A stretch of DNA of 64,000 nt from positions 41,700 to 105,699 of the forward strand of contig JADIIX010000078.1 in the NCBI GenBank assembly GCA_027604505.1, given 5' to 3'. This stretch comes from Gonapodya sp. JEL0774. Taxonomy: Eukaryota; Monoblepharomycota; Monoblepharidomycetes; Monoblepharidales; Gonapodyaceae. This document shows positions 2,477-61,236 of this stretch, piece after piece (the first letter of the stretch is position 1; every line of letters starts with the position of its first letter). The position numbers were made by a program, and so were the translations under genes. The notes under the pieces are model-generated. The model made no database searches and was not told the DNA's origin. It saw nothing but the letters and a program-made list of their open reading frames with translations.

Positions 2477-5400
2477 ATGGCGTTCAATTCGGTAGGCTCT
2501 GATGGATTCGAGCCTGCGTTTTGAATGTGCATGAAGCCAATTTGATCGTGTTCTTCCTCCCTCAAACATTCCCAGAATGGTGGTCCGCCGGTGGGTTTGT
2601 CGGTTCAGGTGTGCGCAGCGCGCAGCTTTCCTCATGCTCAAAAGCTGAGCGCTTTTCCCAGGGTCCACCACCAATAGGCGGACCTCTTGCGTGGGGTGTC
2701 GTTCCTAACGGCCCCTCTGGATTCGGAGGACCACCGCGTGGCCCATCCATGCAACAGGTTGGTGGTTGAAACGGCGGTCTTTTCAGCCGGCTTGAATTCC
2801 GAGAGAGCTCGCAGACGAAGGGTTCAAGGAACCGTTTTCTTGTGGATCCAGAAGCTTTTTATCACTGGGCCGATGTTGATTGGGGTACTTACAGTGGACA
2901 GGGTACTAAAAAGAAATCGGTTGAGTTCGATTCGTTGACAGAAGTTGTCATATGCACACATCAAAGTTAACCGTATTTGCTACTTGGCACTGCTCTGGAA
3001 TGGTGGCAAAGAACTGGAGGAGTGGGGTGACGTGTAACGTTGGGCCAGGAGACTTTCGGACACCAACTCATGGACTGGGGTACTGCGGTGACTGCAGATT
3101 CGCTGCGATTTTGCTCTGACACGTGCATTTCGTCACATTCTGCTTTTTCAATTGTCTCGCTTTTCCGGAACGATTGCAAACGCTTTACTGACACCCAAAA
3201 ACTGGCATAGGTTCAATGGACGGCACATCAGACTACAGACGGGCGAACAGTAAGTAGGAGTAAAGCCGAATATACTCGCCATCTTCATGGGCATCGTCTC
3301 CCCGTTTAGTATTACTACAATGCCGCAACCAAAGCTACCACTTGGGATAAACCCGATGAGCTGAAAAACCCCCTCGAGGTAAATTTCTGCTACTCCCCAA
3401 ATGGTACACTCTTTTAAGTAGCGAGCGTTGCCTCTTAGCGAGCGCTCGCGACCCTTCCTTGGAAAGAATATACCGACAAGGGATCGGGTCGAAAGGTGAT
3501 TCATCTTTTCTGCGCGTTGTGTAATTGTTTTGCCTTCACCTCCAGTTGATGATTTTAATCCTTCAATACTAGTATTACTCCAATACTCAAACAAAGCAAA
3601 CCATATGGGAGATGCCACCCGAATGGAAACAAATGGTGGAGCGTTATGAGAGAGGGGAAAGTCCACTGTGAGGGCAAATAGTACTTTAGCTTTTTGAGTG
3701 TTCAGTTTCATCGCTGACACGGTACTGCTTATGCTGCCAGTGACGCAGCCGATGGCGAGGGTCCGCACGGAGCCGGCCAGCAAGTCGTCGTCGACTTCCG
3801 CACGAAAGAGGAGGCGGAAGAGGCATTTATGAAGCTGTTGGCCGAAACGGTACGTCGATAGTATTTTAGCTGTGAAGATAGAGTTGACACTGAGTTTCGC
3901 AGGGTGTTGATGCCAATTGGTCGTGGGAACAAACAATGAGAGCGGTGATCAGTCATCCAATGTATCGGGCCCTCAAATCCCTTTCTGAACGAAAGACGGC
4001 TTATGAGAAATATGTCGCAGAAAAGAGGAGACAGGAAAGGGTGAGCTTCGCTCATCTATTGATTCAGCGGCGTATGGAAGCGTGAGCGCTTGTTGCCCAA
4101 CTACAGGAGGAGCAAAGAAAGAAGTATATGCGTGATCGAGCAGAGTTTTTGAAGATGCTCGGTGATCATGAGGATATAAAGCCATCCACGAAGTGGCGGA
4201 AGGTGGTTGAGATTCTCAAGGATCATCCAGCTTTCACCGTGATTCCTGGGGAAAAGGAAAGAGAACAGCTGTTTGAGGAATGGGTTTTGGAGACAAGAAA
4301 CAAGGAAAAGGCAAGTTTCTCCTGGATTTGTTGCGTTGCGGTTTTTCCTGACTATATCGTGACCGCAGGACGAATTTAGGCAGCGTCGAAAAGTCAACAT
4401 GGGGAAGTTCCGGAATCTTTTAAAATCGATACCACAGATCGATCGATTTACTCGGTGGAAGGATGCACAGCAATTCTACAAGTCAACGCCAGAATATCAG
4501 AACGATGCTGCTCTGCAGGCTATGGATGCGCTTGACTTCTTGTCTGTCTTCGAGGAGCACATCAAGCAGTTGGAAAACGACTACGAAGAAGCCCGTAACC
4601 GTGACCAAAGACTAAAGCGTCGACAGGAACGTAAGAACAGAGAGGCCTTTTGGGCCTTCCTCTCAGAGCTGGTTGAACGGGGCATCCTGACGTCGACCAC
4701 TAAATGGAAGCAAATTTACCCAATTGTGAAGGACGATTCTCGCTACATGGCAATGCTTGGACAACCTGGATCCAGTCCACTCGAGATGTTCTGGGATGTG
4801 CTCACAGACATGGAAGAAAGGTCGCAGGGTGAAAGGAAACTCGTGTCCGAGATCATGCGGGAGCGAAATATTACCGTCACTCCGGAGACTTCTTTTCCGC
4901 TGTTTCTCGCTCAGTTTTCAGACGAACGTGTTACCAGCGTAGATAAAAATACATTGCGGAAGGTCTACGAAGAGGTGAGTTGTCACTGCTCAACTTGATA
5001 ATCCTTGTGGATTTGTAACAATAATCTGCCGTCAGCAACTGGAGCGCGCAATTCATCGGATTAAAGAAGATAAGCGCAAAGAAGAGAGGAGGATCAGGAA
5101 ACGCATGGATTACTTTAAAGCCCTTCTCAAAAAGGTTGATCCTCCCCTCAGTGGTGAATCAGTCTGGGAGGATGTGAGAAAACGTGCACCCGTTTCACTA
5201 AATTGTTTTTCAGTAAGTACTGTTTCTAAATTGTAGGTGCGACCCCTCATCGAAGACAAGCGTGATTTCTTGGACCTAACCGAAGAACAAAGGATTGAGG
5301 TATTCGATTATGTTGTCAAAAAGTTGCGGAAGAAAGAGGGAGGAAGGGGCGGTGGTGGCGACGACAGTGATGAAGAGGAAGATGAACGCGAAGAGGAACG

Positions 5401-5761
5401 AAGGAGACGGGACGGTCGGGACCGGGACCGCAAAGATCGTGACCGGGAGCGTGAGCGCGAAAGAGATCGGGATCGCTCCAGGAGGGACGACGATAGAGAT
5501 CGTGAGAGGGACAGGGACAAAATCGATCGTCGTGACCGGAGCCGAGATCGCGAACGAGAAGCCCGTGAGAAAAAGCTTCGCCATGAGCGCCCCAGGAGAG
5601 ACAGGAGCGCAACTGGAAGTGATGATGATCACGATCGGAAGCGAAGGAAGAAGGTATGGTTGTTAGCGTCATTCACTGCTGATGTTTCTCTTTCTCAACT
5701 TCACCCGTTACATCGCTGGGTGGGTTTCCAGGACGATGAGATGGAGGAGGGAGAGATTTAA
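2477..5761 (+). CDS. PRP40: Pre-mRNA-processing factor Prp40 (two WW, several FF domains, RD/RE tail)
   Basis: U1 snRNP-associated splicing factor. WW domains bind proline-rich SF1/BBP and RNA polymerase II tail; FF domains bind phospho-peptides. I join 14 exons: 2477-2491, 2576-2608, 2662-2757, 3211-3249, 3310-3378, 3439-3495, 3573-3667, 3741-3849, 3903-4040, 4107-4310, 4369-4974, 5036-5173, 5237-5653, 5732-5761, giving 681 residues. A Gly/Pro-rich start leads into WW1 (WTAHQTTDGRT/YYYN...TTWDKP) and WW2 (PWKEYTDKGSGRK/YYSN...TIWEMP), the inter-WW ERALATLPWKEY being typical. FF repeats follow from about residue 190, then a charged RD/RE-repeat C-terminus ending DDEMEEGEI. One intron (4311-4368) has a GC donor. 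Exon 1 is only five codons, and the intron between exons 3 and 4 is unusually long (453 nt), so an extra small exon there cannot be excluded. Confidence 0.88.
4311..4368 (+). other. GC-AG intron in PRP40
   Basis: The exon ends ...AAG and the intron begins GCAAGT, the classic strong non-canonical donor, and ends CCGCAG. Joining exons 4107-4310 and 4369-4974 continues the second FF region in phase 0. Reading through as coding would hit an in-frame TAG just inside the next exon's shifted frame, so splicing is needed. Confidence 0.7.
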
Positions 5762-5767
5762 ATGTAT

Positions 5768-7504
5768 TCACACATCGTTCAACAATGAGGAAGATTTCTG
5801 AATCCCTTTTATATCAGAGGAAGGTCCGTCGGTATCCACCTTGTCAAACTCCTCGATGAGCTTGACCTGTGCAGCTGCTTCCAAGGGAACATCATCGAAA
5901 AACCAATTTTCAACAATAAACCGAATGCACTGTAGTACAGTCGATCTTTCCCGATGTATCTCTTTTCCAAGCAGCTAGTGACCGAATGTAACACCTTAAC
6001 GCATGCATTGTCAAACCTTAAAGAGAATTGAACCCACCATTTGAAGAAGTGTTTTCCGCTTGGCTCCCATGTCTGATGGTTTCCTCAGGGCAGCGGGGTC
6101 CTTGAATTTCCTCGCTGGCGAAGCTGTATCGTTTATACCGTCATCAGTAAGTTTGGACGTGGGCTCACGAATGTGGCTGAACCTGCAGCGTCTGCCCATC
6201 TGACATCGTCCTCGTTGGAAATATTTGCAAAGAGGGCGATCATTGGAAGCACCAGCAAACCTAGTTTCCGACCGCATTTCACCTCCCCCTGCCTGCGCAG
6301 CACGATGGGCTCCTCTGTCTCGACCCCTTCCATCACGAGGCACCAATTCTCCGCGTTTCCGTTTTTCCTCCTCTTCTTCCATCTTGCGCTTTACATTGGA
6401 GTCCGAGGGCCAGTGCTTTTTACGATCAGCTAACCACTTTGCAATGTCCTCCGGTGTATCAAGGCGAATCGAAGGTGGCAACAGGATTGGGAGGCCAATC
6501 CCGTCAGGTTTAGATTTGAGGGCTGACAGTCTGGCCGCCGGGTTAGAGGGTGAAACTGGAGCATGGCGTTTAACAATATTCTCATCATCGTTCTTCTGTA
6601 TGTGATCAGAACTTGCGGCAACGCCAGAGGTTCCCAATAATGGCCGAGAATTGCTGAGATCCACAAACAAATTCGAAGCATTCAGACCCATCATTTGTTG
6701 ATGTAATTCATGAGCTTGGGAGAGTGCCGTCGCTGCATCTATCGGGTTTGGGACAATGTCGCCACCTTGCCAGGAAGATGTCAGCTTTTCGTAAGAAAGC
6801 ACGGCAGAACCTTCGTCCACGTCTGAGTATTCCCCTTCTTCTTTATCTACTTGGCGTTGTTTGCGCATTTGTTCGTTTGGATCATCTTCTTCCCTCTTCC
6901 GCTTGGGTCTGGTTTCCCCGTCGTGGAAGTCTCTCACGTGGGTTTCCACAATAGCCCGGCCAGCCGCAAAGGCACAGAGTGGGCATTGGATATGGGAAGC
7001 AATGTGTGTTTCCAGGGCTTCCGGATAAACAAAATCCTTGTCGCAAGGAGGGCATCGACAGGGGTGTTTTTGCCCAAACGATGCGGCACCCCAGAGCACG
7101 GAAGACTCTTGACTAATGAACGAGCCATTCTGTTGATTTGGTAACTGCCATCCGACAGATGAGAGGTGGGGCGAATTGTGCCATGATTGAGGGATGGAAA
7201 CGGTGCTCAGAGAAGCGGTTTGGGAACCCGAATGCTGCCTCAAACTAGTTACGGTGGAGTTAAAACCGCCACTATAACTTCCGCGATGAGGAGTTCCACG
7301 GTCGCCAGTTCCTCGTCCTCTACCACTATGAGCCCGGCCGGCTCCAGTAGCCCAGCCTTGGTGACCTCTGGGCGTCCTTCCGTCTCCCCTCCATCGTGTA
7401 GGGTTCCCTCGCGATTGTCTCTGAGGTGGCAGAGGCGGTGGGGAAAAGTGTGGGAACATGTTTTGTTTGGACGCATACAAAATGTTGGGGGTTGTGGTAG
7501 GCAA
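5768..7504 (-). CDS. NUFIP1/Rsa1-like box C/D snoRNP assembly factor
   Basis: Two exons, 6038-7504 and 5768-5974 (intron 63 nt, phase 0), encode about 557 residues. From the N-terminus: a Pro/Arg/Gly-rich stretch; a C2H2 finger (CPPCDKDF...LETHIASH) followed by a second Cys/His cluster (CPLCAF...VETHVRDFH); the conserved NUFIP segment with IRLDTPEDIAKWLADRKKHWP, the part that contacts Snu13/15.5K; a CCCH finger (CKYFQRGRC...CRFSH); and a C-terminal helical region. NUFIP1/Rsa1 is a scaffold that brings Snu13, Nop58 and the R2TP/Hsp90 machinery together during snoRNP assembly in the nucleus. An internal Met (MFPHFSPPP) 15 codons in could also be the start. Its stop codon is 6 nt from that of PRP40, so the two 3' UTRs must overlap. 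Confidence 0.82.
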
Positions 7505-55590: not shown

Positions 55591-56349
55591 CTACTTGTCA
55601 TGACTCACCTTGCTCGCCACCGCACACCAGTCTCCAACCCTCGCGTATGGATCAGTATACATCCCGGGCGCCTGGTCATGGCCCCACACGACCAATTCCG
55701 GAAACGACCGAAGAGCGAGTCGGTGCATTGCGAGTGACTGGTCATCCGACACATCGGATGGGGACGGACCTCGGCGGCGTCGACGGGCGCGTGGTGATAT
55801 GGGGGATGTAGGTGGGCGAATTGGGGTGTCGTAGAGAACATATCCTGAGGGAACTTGACAGGTCAAAACAATTTGGAAGGACATAGCGCTTCTAAGATTA
55901 TGCCCACCTTTGTAACCAGTAGGCACGGGTATCTTACGTCCCTTAAGCAGCCTGCCCCGGAAAACGGTCTCCAGAACCTCCGTCGATTTGGGCAACTGGA
56001 ACTCTTCGCGATTGCCAATCCCCCTCTCCTGCTGGTCCGATACCTTGAGTTCCTCGACCTCCTCTACTACTAGACCACTCTCCTTTGACACTTTTGTCTG
56101 AACTTCCTTCCCGTGTCCATTCGCAACAGTCTCCTCAGCTGAGTTTCCCGATCCGTCGATTGTGTCCTCTCCGCTCTCCTTTTCAATGACCAGGAATCTC
56201 TTCACTTCAGCAGGCCCATCGTAGTTGATTCGGCAAGGGAGAATGTGCACCGTTGTCGGCTTTGCGCCAACTAGACTCTCGGAGGGGATGTGGATCACGA
56301 CTTTCATATGTTCCAATGATTGATTTGAAAGATGGGGAGAGAAATTCAA
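55591..56349 (-). CDS. Ribonuclease H2 subunit C
   Basis: The N-terminus holds VHILPCRINYDGPAEVKRFL, the subunit-C strand pair, and after an acidic insert VLETVFRGRLLKGRKIPVPTGYK, the conserved FRGRxLxGxxVxxPxGY element. A phase-1 intron joins this to VPSGYVLYDTPIRPP, then a basic/Ser insert, and FPELVVWGHDQAPGMYTDPYARVGDWCAVASK to TAG at 55591. RNase H2 removes ribonucleotides from DNA and RNA:DNA hybrids; subunit C with B scaffolds the catalytic A. The call fits the pattern of fungal Rnh203. Start at 56349 or the internal Met at about 56307. A donor right after ASK (AAG/GTGAGT) leaves open a spliced, longer C-terminus. Confidence 0.75.
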   Translation of the reverse strand: MNFSPHLSNQSLEHMKVVIHIPSESLVGAKPTTVHILPCRINYDGPAEVKRFLVIEKESGEDTIDGSGNSAEETVANGHGKEVQTKVSKESGLVVEEVEELKVSDQQERGIGNREEFQLPKSTEVLETVFRGRLLKGRKIPVPTGYKGGHNLRSAMSFQIVLTCQVPSGYVLYDTPIRPPTSPISPRARRRRRGPSPSDVSDDQSLAMHRLALRSFPELVVWGHDQAPGMYTDPYARVGDWCAVASKVSHDK

Positions 56350-56674
56350 CCGAAAAATTGAACTGTCACAGGTGCGGAGATCGAAGAGCAGGAAACAGAG
56401 TCAAAAAGCGGATATCGGAGGGATTGATGTATGTATGGAGAAGAGGATGGCTGGAGAATTGTGCTTCGCTGTGTGGGTTACAAACTGTCGGCAACATTCA
56501 CCGAGACAAAATTGTTATGTAGCTTGGGCGTCGCATTCAAGTGTAATAAACTAGCGACTACCTGCATTTCGAAGATTCATCCATTCCAATTTTGGAAGTC
56601 AATTGATTAACTCCGAACTTGCCAGGCCTTCCAGGCCACAATACGATTCGCACCGGCACATAACAAATAGAAGC
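56350..56674. promoter_or_regulatory. 325-nt divergent region RNase H2C / kinase-LRR gene
   Basis: No coding feature recognised; presumed promoter of the kinase-LRR gene on the plus strand and of RNase H2C on the minus strand. Confidence 0.3.
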
Positions 56675-59600
56675 ATGCTTTCGACGGCCCAACATGGGGC
56701 TGCCACAACACCCGCAAATTCTATTTCGTTTTCAGGATTGATGCCCGGATCCCGTGATTGGATGTCGAAACGGGAACACGTGACGATTTCGAAAGATGTG
56801 CTCGGAGTGGGTGGGTATGGTATTGTCTATAAAGGGATCTGGAGGTTCGGTCGGGCACCTGTCGCAGTAAAACTCTTGCGAGATTCGGCCGCGTACAGCA
56901 CTGAAGTGCAGGAGGTAGGTGGATTCAGTAGTGGAAATCGCAATAAATTCGATCTCACTTATCCTGTAGAATTTTTTGAACGAAGTCGAAGTCTGGTGGA
57001 AGTTGAAACACCAGAACATCCTACCACTTCTTGGTGGGTCGATTTGGCATGATTCTAAGTGGATGCACATCGGTAATCACCCATTCCTGTCTACAAGGCG
57101 CATGTATCGATGCCCAAGGGGAACCGTACATGATATCTCCGCTTATGGAGAATGGAAGTGTAATGGAGTATCTGTACAAGCACCCTGAAGCAAACACTCC
57201 GAGGAGGAAGCTCGAACTGGTCGGTGTGGCTGCTAAGAACCTAAGAAGACGAATCCGTTTTACCACTTTTGTGTGCCACAAAGCTCTCCGATATTTGCAG
57301 TGGTTTAGATTATCTCCACGAAATGGGAATAATTCATACAGAGTGAGTGAACGCTCGTCTATTGATTTCGGCACCTCTGCCAACCACAAATTTTGAAACT
57401 CAGTCTCAAGCCTAACAACATTTTGGTTGACAAACAAGGTAATGCTGTGGTGACAGACTTCGGATTCGCCAAAGTCAAGGTGAATTGTCGTGATTTGTCC
57501 TTTCGAATTGTCAGATGATGGACAGCATGCGGATTCCACGCTCTTTATAATCAGGATTCAGCGGTGTCAGGTACAAGAGTCGGTACAGGGGCTTACATGC
57601 CTCCGGAGCGTCTTGCTCTCTGGTTTTGGAACTCACCAGTCGCCCGCAACGTCTGCACGAAAGGTTGTACCAAACACACATACTTTTATTTGAGAATGAG
57701 AACTTAAACTACAACGTTTCAATTACAGCGGGTGATATATACGCGTTTGGTATCACTTGCTATGAAGTGGGTCGGCGCTTGTAAAGTCTTGCAGTCTCGC
57801 GACTGCTCATATCATTTTCAATAGATCTGGAGCCGCCAACCTGCCTTCCAGTGGAGCACACGAAGTCCCGAAGAACAGCAGGTCGTCTACTCTGGCATTA
57901 TCACTGGAGATCGTCGCCCTGATATGTCGCTTGTTGATGATATGCCAACGGAACTGCAGGGCTTGATGAAACAGTGCTGGGCTGTGGTGAGTGATGCAAA
58001 ATGAACTCAAACTTTAGCTCCTGTTGATCTGTCGAGTGCTATGACTTGTATTGCAGGACCCGGAAGAGAGGCCTAAGGATTTTGCAATGTTGTTTGACGC
58101 AGTCACCCGCTTGATGTGAGGAGGCTGCATTCATGGTGTTCCACTTGGTGTTCGCGAGATCACACTTCTGTGTTCAGTGATCAACTCCCCGAGACACCTG
58201 CTCCCGTTGCTCCGTCGAGATACGCCCCCCCTCCCTCCAATTCCCTTCCAACAGAAAACTTTGTCGCCGTGAGTTCTCTACAGCTTTTTAGTACAAGACA
58301 GTGTATTGACGGTTTTGAATGCAAGAGCAAATGGAGGGAACTCACAGCTGACGAAATGCGACTGCCTGAGGAGATCCAAAATGCCATCCTCACACTTCAC
58401 AACGGCTCGCCACTGGAACTTGATCTCACCGGTGAGATGCAGCTGATTAATTCTATCATCTCAAGTCTTAATTAAGCATATTACTTCGTGAAGCCAAGTT
58501 CATCCCCGTCGAAACTATTCAAGCAGAACAAAACGCTCAAGCACTATTCGAGCTCTGTGTGTGCGATTCTGATGCGGACTGTTGAAAGATATTTGGTCCT
58601 AATCGCTTTCGTGTAACAACAGGGAATTTGTCAATGCAGCGACGGTTAGCAAATGTCCGGCAAAGTCGGCAAGTTCCACCTCCCCCGGCATTCGAAATAT
58701 TGGCACAAGACAAAGAACGTCGGCGAATTGATCTGGAGAACGCTCAGGCAAAGCGTGAGGTGCGAAGAAGAGAAGAGTTAGATGATGCGACTATTGTCGC
58801 CCGGTTGCGACCCCTTTGCGAGGCTATACGCATCAACAAAACTTTGTTGGATTTGCGTTTTGGTTGTGAGTTTGTTTGATGGCCCTAAAGCAGTGCTGCA
58901 AATTTTGAATGTGTTTTCTAACACAGCGAACAGAGTCACGGATGATGGAGTCCGATGCTTCGCCGAAGTTTTCAAAGCAACTGGAATACTCAACTCTCTT
59001 CAGCTAACAAGTGAGATGCGGAAACATCTCCATAAGGCTGCATGAAAGCTGACAAAGGCAATATTTTTCAGATAACAGAATAACAGGAGGGGGAGCTGCA
59101 GCACTAGCAAATGTATTGAAGACGAATAGGAGTCTGATGATATGTGACATCAGTGGTGAGTATTCTCATCCAATGTTCGTGTTGTTTCAATATGTGTTTA
59201 TGTGCACTCTTCGTTTGCATTTTTACAATTCTTTTGGCAAAATCGAACCATTCGTATCCCATTGCAGAAAACCCCATTGGAGATGACGGAGCTCGTGCAC
59301 TTGCCGAAATGATGAGAGAGAACTCTACACTCTCCGTGCTCAACATTCAAGGTGATGTGATTCTGGACGTGAGAATGTGATCCCAACGCTAAGCCTTTCG
59401 ATTAGGTTGTTCCATTGGATCAGAGGGAGCTACCTTGTTGTGCGCCGCTCTCATACGAAATACCGGGCTGAAAAGCTTGAAGCTTGGCAGTAAGGATTCA
59501 GAGACAGAAAGAAACCATTTGCGCATGAGTTCATACTTAATCTCCAGGAAATGATATCGGTGACGCTGGACTCGTCGCTGCAGCCAAAGCCATCTTGGAA

Positions 59601-60472
59601 AATCATTCATTGGAGAGGTTATCCCTCCACAGCCAGCAAACGGGTGAGCTATTATCTGTGTTAGTAAGATATTCATCTCGTTCATTCTGGACGTGGTAGC
59701 TGCCGCGCCGGATAGTGTGCGACTCTTCGCTGACTCTCTCTCGAGTAATTTGAGCCTTGTGGAATTAGACTTTTCAGGTGAGGATTGAATTTCGTTGTCG
59801 GGTTCAGAACAATACTACAAAGCGGTTTGCACACAACAGGAATGAGCATCGGTGATGCCGGAGCAATGGCCTTTTCAGCCGCGTTGCTGGAGAATTCTTC
59901 TCTGTCAACTCTCCATCTCGACTGTACGTTCAACTTGAGTAGATTCCTGCCGGATTTATTTTCAGAGTTGTTCTGTCTGAAGATAATCGAATCGGACCGG
60001 ATGGAGTGGAAGAGCTCTCCGAAATGCTTCGTTCCAACGAGACACTAAAGGAGCTCTTCCTGAATAGTGAGTAGGGCTTGCATCGTTCACCGGCAATACT
60101 GCAAGATTCCGGCAAAGTCTCATCGCCGTCAACCCAGATAATAATATCGGCTCAGTTGGAACGCATGCTTTGGCCCAAGCGTTGAAAGCGAACAAAAGTT
60201 TGTTGACACTTGATGTGCGAGATTGTTCAGTGGGACGGAGGGACGATGACTCTTCAAACGAACGAACTGGCGTCCATGACCTCGCTGACGCACTGAAAAG
60301 CAACACCACACTGCAGTCTCTTTACTGTTATGGTAAGGATTGCATTTTATGGTTCTGTGACGTCCCCTTTTATTGTTTCTCTTTAGATCACACCATCACC
60401 GAGAAACAATGGGAGTATTTGAAAGAAGCTGCCAGAGTTAAGGGTACATGTGTTGTATCGAATGGCCGTTGA
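56675..60472 (+). CDS. TKL-type protein kinase fused to a C-terminal RI-type leucine-rich-repeat array
   Basis: 22 exons join in phase to 821 residues; the coding sum is 2466 nt. Kinase (about residues 36-310): GVGGYGIVYKG loop, VAVK with Lys66, αC Glu in FLNEVEVWWKLKHQN, GIIHTDLKPNN catalytic loop (HTD at 160-162 instead of HRD), TDFGFAKV (DFG 180-182), GAYMPPERL, GDIYAFG and DPEERP. A Pro-rich linker (310-395) follows. From about 395 to the end come RI-type LRRs (consensus N-x-I-G-x-x-G-A-x-A-L-A-x-x-L-x-x-N-x-S-L-x-x-L-x-L), interrupted by a charged, helical 80-residue exon (58623-58862). The exon end at 58560 is the least certain junction. Function: probably a signalling receptor-like kinase; ligand and target unknown. 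No NACHT/NB-ARC, signal peptide or membrane segment, so likely cytosolic. Confidence 0.82.
58477..60472 (+). repeat. Exon-encoded LRR array, mostly 84-nt phase-1 units
   Basis: Exons 58477-58560, 58927-59010, 59072-59155, 59268-59351, 59406-59489, 59840-59923 and 59983-60066 are each exactly 84 nt (28 codons). 59548-59643 is 96 nt, 59700-59777 is 78 nt, 60138-60332 carries two units plus an insert, and 60387-60472 is the last. Every intron interrupts the codon just before the Asn of the N-x-I motif in phase 1, so units are symmetric and can be added or lost without breaking frame. Confidence 0.8.
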
Positions 60473-60573
60473 TTGAAATCACATAATTATTTTGTCTGGG
60501 GTGCAAGTGACTGTATTGAATGGTGTGGAAGCTGTTTCAGTAAAAGTCACAACCCCTCTCCTCAAGCTCTGCC

Positions 60574-61236
60574 ATGCTCCGAAAAGCATTACGCTTCTCA
60601 GCTGTTGTTGCCTTGCGATCGGTTGCTTCAACGGCTGCAAACACCGCCCGACGTTCTTTTCCTCTGAGAGTGCCGAATCAGACGTCATTTCAACTCCGTC
60701 AACACTCCCATCCTTCCCCCCTGTTTTTCCCACTCTCTTCACAATCTACGCGTCCCTTTTCCTCCTCACCCGCCACGTGCTCTGTCGATGAGCTGCTTCC
60801 GCATCGATCATCTCCCCTGCAGTCACCAGAATCCTCCGAACCCCCCAGTACATCCCGTCTGTCGGAATCTGAAACCGCCGCTTCCCTGAAGCTTCTCTCT
60901 AGTGACTCCAATCTCTACGCCATCGTGGAGATCCGGGGACGCCCGTACCACATTCACAAAAACGATGTGATTGTGCTCGACCGAGCACGGGACTTAGAGG
61001 TCGGGGATGTCGTTGTTCTGGACACTGTCACAGAAGTTGGAGGAGATAACTACGTTTTGCAGGGTCGGCCGTTCGTCAGTAACGAGTGGGTGGACATTCA
61101 CGGTGTGTGCATTGAGCACACCACTGGACAACCAATGGTTATCAAAAAGCAGAGGCGAAGAGGGCACAGGAAGGTTGTGGTGAATGAACAGCATGTAACA
61201 CTCCTTAGGGTGAGCGAGTTGGCTGTAAAAGTATAG
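60574..61236 (+). CDS. Mitochondrial large-subunit ribosomal protein bL21m
   Basis: Single exon, 220 residues. An Arg/Ala-rich presequence (MLRKALRFSAVVALRSVAST) and a Ser/Pro-rich stretch to about residue 100 precede the L21 domain: LYAIVEIRGRPYHIHKNDVIVLDRARDLEVGDVVVLDTV and the end VIKKQRRRGHRKVVVNEQHVTLLRV. The Lys/Arg cluster with a GHR motif contacts rRNA in bacterial L21. It assembles in the mitoribosome. Starts 101 nt after the kinase-LRR stop on the same strand. It is the only clearly intronless gene of any size in the window. Confidence 0.9.
   Translation: MLRKALRFSAVVALRSVASTAANTARRSFPLRVPNQTSFQLRQHSHPSPLFFPLSSQSTRPFSSSPATCSVDELLPHRSSPLQSPESSEPPSTSRLSESETAASLKLLSSDSNLYAIVEIRGRPYHIHKNDVIVLDRARDLEVGDVVVLDTVTEVGGDNYVLQGRPFVSNEWVDIHGVCIEHTTGQPMVIKKQRRRGHRKVVVNEQHVTLLRVSELAVKV

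What the first reader, a model, noticed from the sequence alone, without database searches (positions are those of the whole stretch)
56675..60472. Kinase-LRR fusion gene: a candidate undescribed fungal receptor-like kinase
One continuous, phase-consistent 22-exon model puts a TKL/RIPK-like kinase in front of an NLRC3-like ribonuclease-inhibitor LRR array, with no NACHT, NB-ARC or membrane segment. Plant receptor kinases have the reverse order (plant-specific LRRs outside, kinase C-terminal), and animal NLRs lack a kinase. Kinase first with RI-type LRRs last would be a distinct sensor layout: the LRR array could sense a ligand and the kinase signal directly. Motifs are seen in the sequence; the sensing role is inference.
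Basis: partly seen in the sequence, partly recalled or inferred. Interest (0 to 1): 0.85.

Follow-up and report, generated by a model that had tools for sequence, protein, structure and literature searches.

The report
Fungal kinase fused to leucine-rich repeats
A zoospore-type fungus carries a gene whose protein joins a protein kinase to a horseshoe-shaped leucine-rich-repeat array, and at least seven sister genes plus related NLR-like genes in the same genome share these parts, which hints at an LRR-based sensing system of a kind reported to be missing from fungi.

Summary
A 23-exon (not 22) phase-consistent GT-AG model at 56675-60472 encodes 796 aa: a non-RD TKL-type kinase (Pfam E 3.6e-47) followed by an RI-type LRR array (LRR_6 E 9e-28; ribonuclease inhibitor E 4e-38). 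No NB-ARC, NACHT, signal peptide or membrane segment is apparent. The fusion is not a lone oddity. At least seven other kinase loci in the same 25-Mb genome are followed on the same strand by the same kind of LRR; the closest (C45, 58% kinase identity) shares the phase-2 intron just after the kinase. The genome has fungus-specific and flagellar genes. It also holds kinase-Sel1 genes, kinase-PNP-PNP-NB-ARC-TPR loci and five NB-ARC-TPR-LRR loci. Two kinases about 96% identical in DNA carry LRRs in one gene and PNP/TPR modules in the other, so C-terminal modules are swapped. I read the gene as a cytosolic sensor or docking kinase, one member of a shuffled NLR-like family. "Undescribed" is too strong: four LRR+kinase genes of Batrachochytrium were listed in 2010. 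"Receptor-like kinase" is wrong: no membrane segment. NLRs with LRRs, however, contradict published statements about fungi. Single-transcript proof, ligand and function are untested.

The parts
56675..60472 (+). Kinase-LRR gene, coding region, 23 exons, 796 aa (ATG 56675, TGA 60470-60472)
   Evidence: all introns GT-AG, phase-consistent; bounded by a divergent RNase H2 subunit C gene and the L21 gene
56792..58077 (+). Protein kinase domain (aa 40-297, exons 1-9); G-loop GVGGYG, K66, E85, H160-T161-D162 (non-RD), N167, D180-F-G
   Evidence: PF07714 E 3.6e-47; residues read from the translation
58116..58177 (+). Intron 9, phase 2, just after the kinase domain; retention would stop the protein at a TGA immediately after the kinase. 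Same position and phase in paralog C45
58178..58777 (+). Linker (exons 10-13): proline-rich stretch, a degenerate first LRR and a charged helical stretch
   Evidence: translation; C45 has a similar linker that runs straight into an LRR
58778..60418 (+). RI-type LRR array, about 10-11 repeats; exons 14-17, 20 and 21 are 84 nt and phase 1-1
   Evidence: ribonuclease inhibitor 4per E 4.1e-38, aa 499-735
60387..60472 (+). Last exon (23), C-terminal cap
55591..56400 (-). Divergent neighbour, RNase H2 subunit C (flanking, not part of the system)
   Evidence: PF08615 E 6.8e-17
60544..61236 (+). Downstream neighbour, mitochondrial-type ribosomal protein L21 (flanking, not part of the system)
   Evidence: PF00829 E 3.2e-16

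Best explanation
The gene encodes one cytosolic protein: an N-terminal, catalytically complete non-RD TKL-type kinase, a flexible linker and a C-terminal RI-type LRR horseshoe. It belongs to a family in this zoosporic fungus in which a kinase module is joined to exchangeable C-terminal modules: LRR, Sel1, or PNP-PNP-NB-ARC-TPR. Proposed mechanism (inference): the concave LRR face binds a protein ligand, probably non-self or modified self; binding clusters or releases the kinase, which phosphorylates itself or a substrate and so starts the response, without an NB-ARC switch. Shown: gene structure, domains, recurrence of the architecture, module exchange, and between-repeat variation concentrated on the concave face in a paralog. 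Inferred: ligand binding, kinase activation, defence-like role.
For: Spliced model and domains. Seven more kinase loci with same-strand LRRs. The junction intron is conserved in C45. In C119 kinase and LRR are separated by one in-phase intron of about 60 nt, leaving little room for a second promoter. In C274 the kinase ORF runs on for about 260 aa, right up to the LRR exons. Nearly all paralogs have HAD/HTD/HCD/HSD catalytic loops. C232 (kinase-LRR) and C247 (kinase-PNP-PNP-TPR) are 95.8% identical through the kinase plus about 120 nt, then unrelated. LRR exon+intron units are tandemly amplified in C274 (13.8 copies of about 201 nt). In C274, variation between repeats sits at positions 3, 24, 26 and 28 of the repeat; only 3 of 17,550 position sets are as variable. 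NB-ARC-TPR-LRR loci in the same genome.
Against: There are no transcripts, no ligand and no assay. The pN/pS ratio at the concave positions is 0.75, so positive selection is not shown. That test is on a paralog; the window's own repeats are too diverged. An in-frame ATG at 58356 leaves a separate LRR gene formally possible at this one locus. RI-type LRRs also occur in other proteins of large assemblies (LRRC34, MOP84A).
Confidence: 0.5

Rival explanations
1. A docking or scaffold kinase: the LRR array holds a fixed internal partner (for example a cytoskeletal or flagellar protein) and gives the kinase substrate specificity. It does not sense non-self.
For: PDB matches of the LRR part include LRRC34 (9fqr), MOP84A (9e5c) and a ribonuclease inhibitor-like protein (9y6s), which by their chain names look like parts of large assemblies; the organism has flagellar genes; the window's own repeats are diverged and not recently amplified.
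Against: The paralogs show tandem repeat amplification, module swapping and concave-face variation, unusual for a conserved scaffold; many copies in one genome.
Confidence: 0.27
2. Two adjacent genes, a kinase and an LRR protein, or an intron-retained kinase-only product with a separate LRR gene.
For: A TGA lies directly after the kinase if intron 9 is retained; an in-frame ATG at 58356 could start an LRR gene.
Against: The same junction intron in C45; a single in-phase intron of about 60 nt in C119 and a continuous kinase-plus-linker ORF in C274; same order and strand at eight loci; phase-consistent splice.
Confidence: 0.06
3. The kinase is a decoy or bait module, with signalling done by partner proteins.
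For: Kinase domains are rare additions to fungal NLRs and have been proposed as integrated decoys in Sordariales (PMC12258605).
Against: All catalytic residues are present and the kinase is N-terminal, where effectors sit in NLRs; most of the family keeps the catalytic Asp, Asn and DFG.
Confidence: 0.08

Closest known systems
LRR + protein kinase proteins of Batrachochytrium dendrobatidis listed in Soanes & Talbot 2010 (PMC2939053, Table S8)
   Same: Chytrid fungus; LRR and protein kinase in one protein; no membrane helix.
   Different: Not described beyond the table; domain order, LRR type and family structure are not given in the text I could read.
Plant LRR receptor-like kinases
   Same: LRR and a TKL-related kinase in one chain; many immune members are non-RD (own knowledge).
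   Different: Reverse order, extracellular plant-type LRRs and a membrane helix; here RI-type LRRs are C-terminal, with no membrane segment.
NLRs of animals (RI-type LRR: NOD, NLRC3)
   Same: C-terminal RI-type LRR; one repeat per 84-nt exon as I recall it for NLRC3/NOD genes (own knowledge, not tested).
   Different: No NACHT; a kinase sits where the N-terminal adaptor and NACHT would be.
Fungal NLR-like (STAND) proteins
   Same: Combinatorial N-terminal effector and C-terminal repeats; PKinase and PNP_UDP effectors and TPR repeats are known there (PMC4986451).
   Different: Published fungal NLRs carry ANK, TPR or WD repeats and no LRR; the window gene has no NB domain.
FslK, fungi-specific TK-related kinases (PMC3937382)
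   Same: TK/TKL-like kinases expanded in some fungi, a few in chytrids.
   Different: Most have no additional domains; membership of the window kinase was not tested.
LRRK/Roco kinases
   Same: LRR plus TKL kinase (own knowledge).
   Different: LRR-Roc-COR-kinase order; no Roc or COR here.

Membership tests
Tyrosine kinase-like (TKL) Ser/Thr kinases | PK_Tyr_Ser-Thr-type domain with all catalytic motifs and a Ser/Thr-type DLKxxN loop | tested here: met
   PF07714 E 3.6e-47 over aa 40-297; K66, E85, D162, N167, D180; loop HTDLKPNN (read)
Tyrosine kinase-like (TKL) Ser/Thr kinases | Placement in the TKL group by a tree with reference kinases | not tested
   Only paralogs were in the tree; PDB hits mix TK and TKL
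Receptor-like kinase (plant type) | Signal peptide, extracellular LRR, single membrane helix, C-terminal kinase | tested here: not met
   Kinase N-terminal, LRR C-terminal; no hydrophobic segment
NLR (NOD-like receptor) | Central NACHT or NB-ARC domain | tested here: not met
   No match in the protein; NB-ARC exists elsewhere in the genome
RI-type LRR superfamily | 28-29-aa repeats LxxLxLxxNxIgxxGaxxLaxaLxxN | tested here: met
   LRR_6 E 9.2e-28; ribonuclease inhibitor 4per E 4.1e-38; 84-nt exons
Kinase-LRR family of this genome | Kinase followed on the same strand by RI-type LRR, with paralogs | tested here: met
   8 loci including the window; C45 shares the junction intron
FslK (fungi-specific TK-related) | Groups with the FslK clade | not testable with these tools
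   Reference sequences not available here
B. dendrobatidis LRR-kinase genes (Soanes & Talbot 2010) | Sequence homology to the four listed genes | not testable with these tools
   Eukaryotic genomes other than G000 are not held; supplementary tables were not readable
LRRK/Roco | Roc-COR between LRR and kinase | tested here: not met
   No such domain in the Pfam scan

The most novel reading that the evidence does not exclude
A zoosporic fungus runs a cytosolic LRR-based recognition system, made of kinase-LRR proteins without an NB switch and NB-ARC-TPR-LRR NLRs, in which kinase, LRR, Sel1, PNP and NB-ARC modules are exchanged at a joint after the kinase. This would overturn the view that fungi lack LRR receptors and that the NB-LRR architecture is absent from fungi.
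Probability: 0.35. Interest if true: 0.85.

Novelty: new variant of a known kind. Interest (0 to 1): 0.62.

Why it matters
[quoted passage not shown] A genome with at least eight kinase-LRR loci and five NB-ARC-TPR-LRR loci, with visible module swapping and repeat amplification, gives a testable fungal case for how LRR sensors are assembled, and for whether a kinase can stand in for the NB switch.

Tried and rejected
Two separate genes: judged unlikely from the conserved junction intron in C45, the single short in-phase intron in C119 and the continuous kinase-plus-linker ORF in C274. A hidden NB-ARC or NACHT between kinase and LRR: not found in the window gene or in the linkers scanned at paralogs. 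Positive selection on the LRR face: not shown, pN/pS 0.75; a first pass used wrongly indexed positions and was discarded. The script stopped at the fifth array (C232b) on a division by zero (no synonymous changes in the denominator group); the first four arrays were computed. Literature searches for chytrid LRR kinases by other wordings found nothing further.

Full report
What was checked. I rebuilt the gene from splice sites and reading frames. Retention of 17 of the introns would shift the frame, and 14 contain an in-frame stop. The flanks are ordinary: a divergent RNase H2 subunit C gene and a downstream ribosomal protein L21 gene.

Domains. Pfam finds a protein kinase at aa 40-297 (PF07714, E 3.6e-47; PF00069, E 2.4e-46) and LRR_6 (E 9.2e-28). 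Against the PDB, the LRR part aligns to ribonuclease inhibitor (4per, E 4.1e-38, aa 499-735); the kinase aligns to EGFR, Src-Abl, Eph, B-Raf and plant CTR1. No NB-ARC or NACHT is matched. No stretch is hydrophobic enough for a membrane helix (best 19-residue mean 1.3, inside an LRR), and the N-terminus does not look like a signal peptide (read from the sequence). The catalytic set is complete: G-loop GVGGYG, K66, E85, D162, N167, D180 (read). The loop is HTDLKPNN, so the kinase is non-RD; nearly all its relatives in this genome have HAD, HCD, HSD or HTD as well. In plants and animals, non-RD kinases are common in innate immunity (own knowledge); this is a hint, not a test. Six of the ten exons 13-22 that carry the array are exactly 84 nt, phase 1 in and out, one repeat per exon.

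Is it one gene? No transcript data were available. The sequence evidence comes from relatives. The closest paralog, on contig C45, has a kinase 58% identical and the same phase-2 intron at the same place after the kinase, followed by a linker and about ten LRRs. In C119, kinase and LRR are joined by one in-phase intron of about 60 nt. In C274 the kinase ORF runs on for about 260 aa up to the LRR exons. An in-frame ATG at 58356 means a separate LRR gene at the window locus cannot be excluded by sequence alone, but I consider it unlikely.

Recurrence. I fetched 38 other loci of this genome holding 40 related kinase domains. They were chosen from the best kinase matches, and four of them (C45, C274, C139, C119) because LRR hits had been seen nearby, so the fraction is not an unbiased rate. 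Seven have RI-type LRRs downstream on the same strand (C45, C274, C139, C119, C51 and two on C232), none on the opposite strand; the LRR profile gave 69 hits of 8 bits or more in real ORFs and none in shuffled ORFs. By my own arithmetic, with about 30 LRR places in 25 Mb, fewer than 0.1 such same-strand neighbours within 1.6 kb would be expected by chance. The LRR-bearing kinases lie in several separate parts of the kinase tree.

Other architectures in the same genome. Related kinases are followed by Sel1 repeats (C247, C159, C167, C134, C291), or by two PNP_UDP_1 domains and TPRs (C380, C247), with an NB-ARC recognised by Pfam in C380. Whether the PNP-NB-ARC-TPR stretches form one gene with the kinase was not resolved. 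Five loci (C180, C171, C374, C338, C112) have NB-ARC, then TPR, then the same kind of LRR; C171 has one in-frame TGA in its NB-ARC match and was not examined further.

Module exchange. The kinases on C232 (LRR type) and C247 (PNP type) are 95.8% identical in DNA over 1110 bases, which ends about 120 bases beyond the kinase domain; downstream nothing aligns. Upstream the similarity continues in pieces into the 5' region. The downstream part of C247 is in turn 79-86% identical to that of C380, whose kinase belongs to another part of the tree. This is direct evidence for swapping of C-terminal modules at a joint just after the kinase, unless the assembly is chimeric at these short contigs. The LRR exon+intron unit is tandemly amplified: about 13.8 copies of 201 nt in C274, about 93% identity between units in one C232 gene, and also in the NB-ARC loci. 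C119 and C274 share LRR cassettes including introns although their kinases lie apart in the tree.

Concave-face variation. In the C274 array, differences between repeats concentrate at repeat positions 3, 24, 26 and 28, which by the LxxLxLxxN pattern are exposed positions of the concave beta-sheet: pN 0.47 against 0.08 elsewhere, and only 3 of 17,550 sets of four positions are as variable. C180 (50 sets) and C374 (95 sets) behave alike; C171 does not (1922 sets). The pN/pS ratio stays below 1, so positive selection is not shown, and structural constraint on the other positions contributes. This supports a binding face that diversifies, in paralogs; the window's own repeats are too diverged for the test.

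Which organism? Unnamed. It has 34 Fungal_trans matches, chitin synthase N-terminal matches and radial spoke protein 3, so a zoosporic (chytrid-like) fungus is the best reading. I did not determine the species.

How it probably works. An intracellular protein in which the LRR horseshoe binds a partner or ligand and the kinase gives the output; without an NB switch, clustering or release of the kinase would be the trigger. The recognition role is inferred from the anatomy and from how the family evolves. The main rival is a docking or scaffold kinase, since RI-type LRRs also occur in LRRC34 and MOP84A.

What is known. Soanes & Talbot 2010 (PMC2939053) conclude that LRR receptors are almost entirely absent from fungi, but list four B. 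dendrobatidis genes with LRR and protein kinase and no membrane helix. Kinase plus LRR in a chytrid is therefore not entirely new; whether those genes are homologs could not be tested. They searched only three LRR Pfam models (PF00560, PF07723, PF07725), not LRR_6. Dyrka et al. 2014 found no LRR in 5,616 fungal NLR candidates and no NLRs in chytrids. A 2025 review repeats that the NB-LRR architecture appeared absent. A 2025 survey that did include LRR models found few NLRs in Chytridiomycota; the passages I read do not report LRR ones. FslK kinases are a known fungal TK-related expansion, mostly without extra domains.

Verdict. 'Receptor-like kinase' and 'undescribed' should be dropped. The more interesting finding is the family around it and the NB-ARC-TPR-LRR loci.

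Noticed in passing
G000 C180:7580-11110 (L025), C171:28326-31215 (L026), C374:159-3445 (L063), C338:1001-3382 (L064), C112:69194-71600 (L065): NB-ARC followed by TPR and RI-type LRR repeats on the same strand: NLR-like loci with LRRs in a fungal genome, against published statements that fungal NLRs lack LRRs.
   Followed up: partly
L030 (C247) and L032 (C232): Kinases 95.8% identical in DNA over 1.1 kb, one followed by LRRs, the other by two PNP_UDP_1 domains and TPRs; identity ends about 120 bases after the kinase domain.
   Followed up: partly
L028/L069 (C380:1-5300) and L030/L068 (C247): Kinase, PNP_UDP_1, PNP_UDP_1, NB-ARC (C380) and TPR in a row on one strand; possibly one very large NLR-like gene.
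   Followed up: partly
L031, L038, L040, L058, L060: Kinases followed by long Sel1 repeat arrays in open frames (9-19 repeats).
   Followed up: no
L022 minus strand 2994-5786 (C274); L024; L045: LRR exon plus intron amplified in tandem as one unit of about 143-201 bases, introns included; C119 and C274 share the unit although their kinases lie apart in the tree.
   Followed up: partly
L033:2552-3346 (-), C100: A VIT domain (vault/inter-alpha-trypsin) lies just downstream of a kinase on the same strand.
   Followed up: no
L049:1644-2966 (+), C113: A PI-PLC-X domain lies downstream of a kinase on the same strand; may be a separate gene.
   Followed up: no
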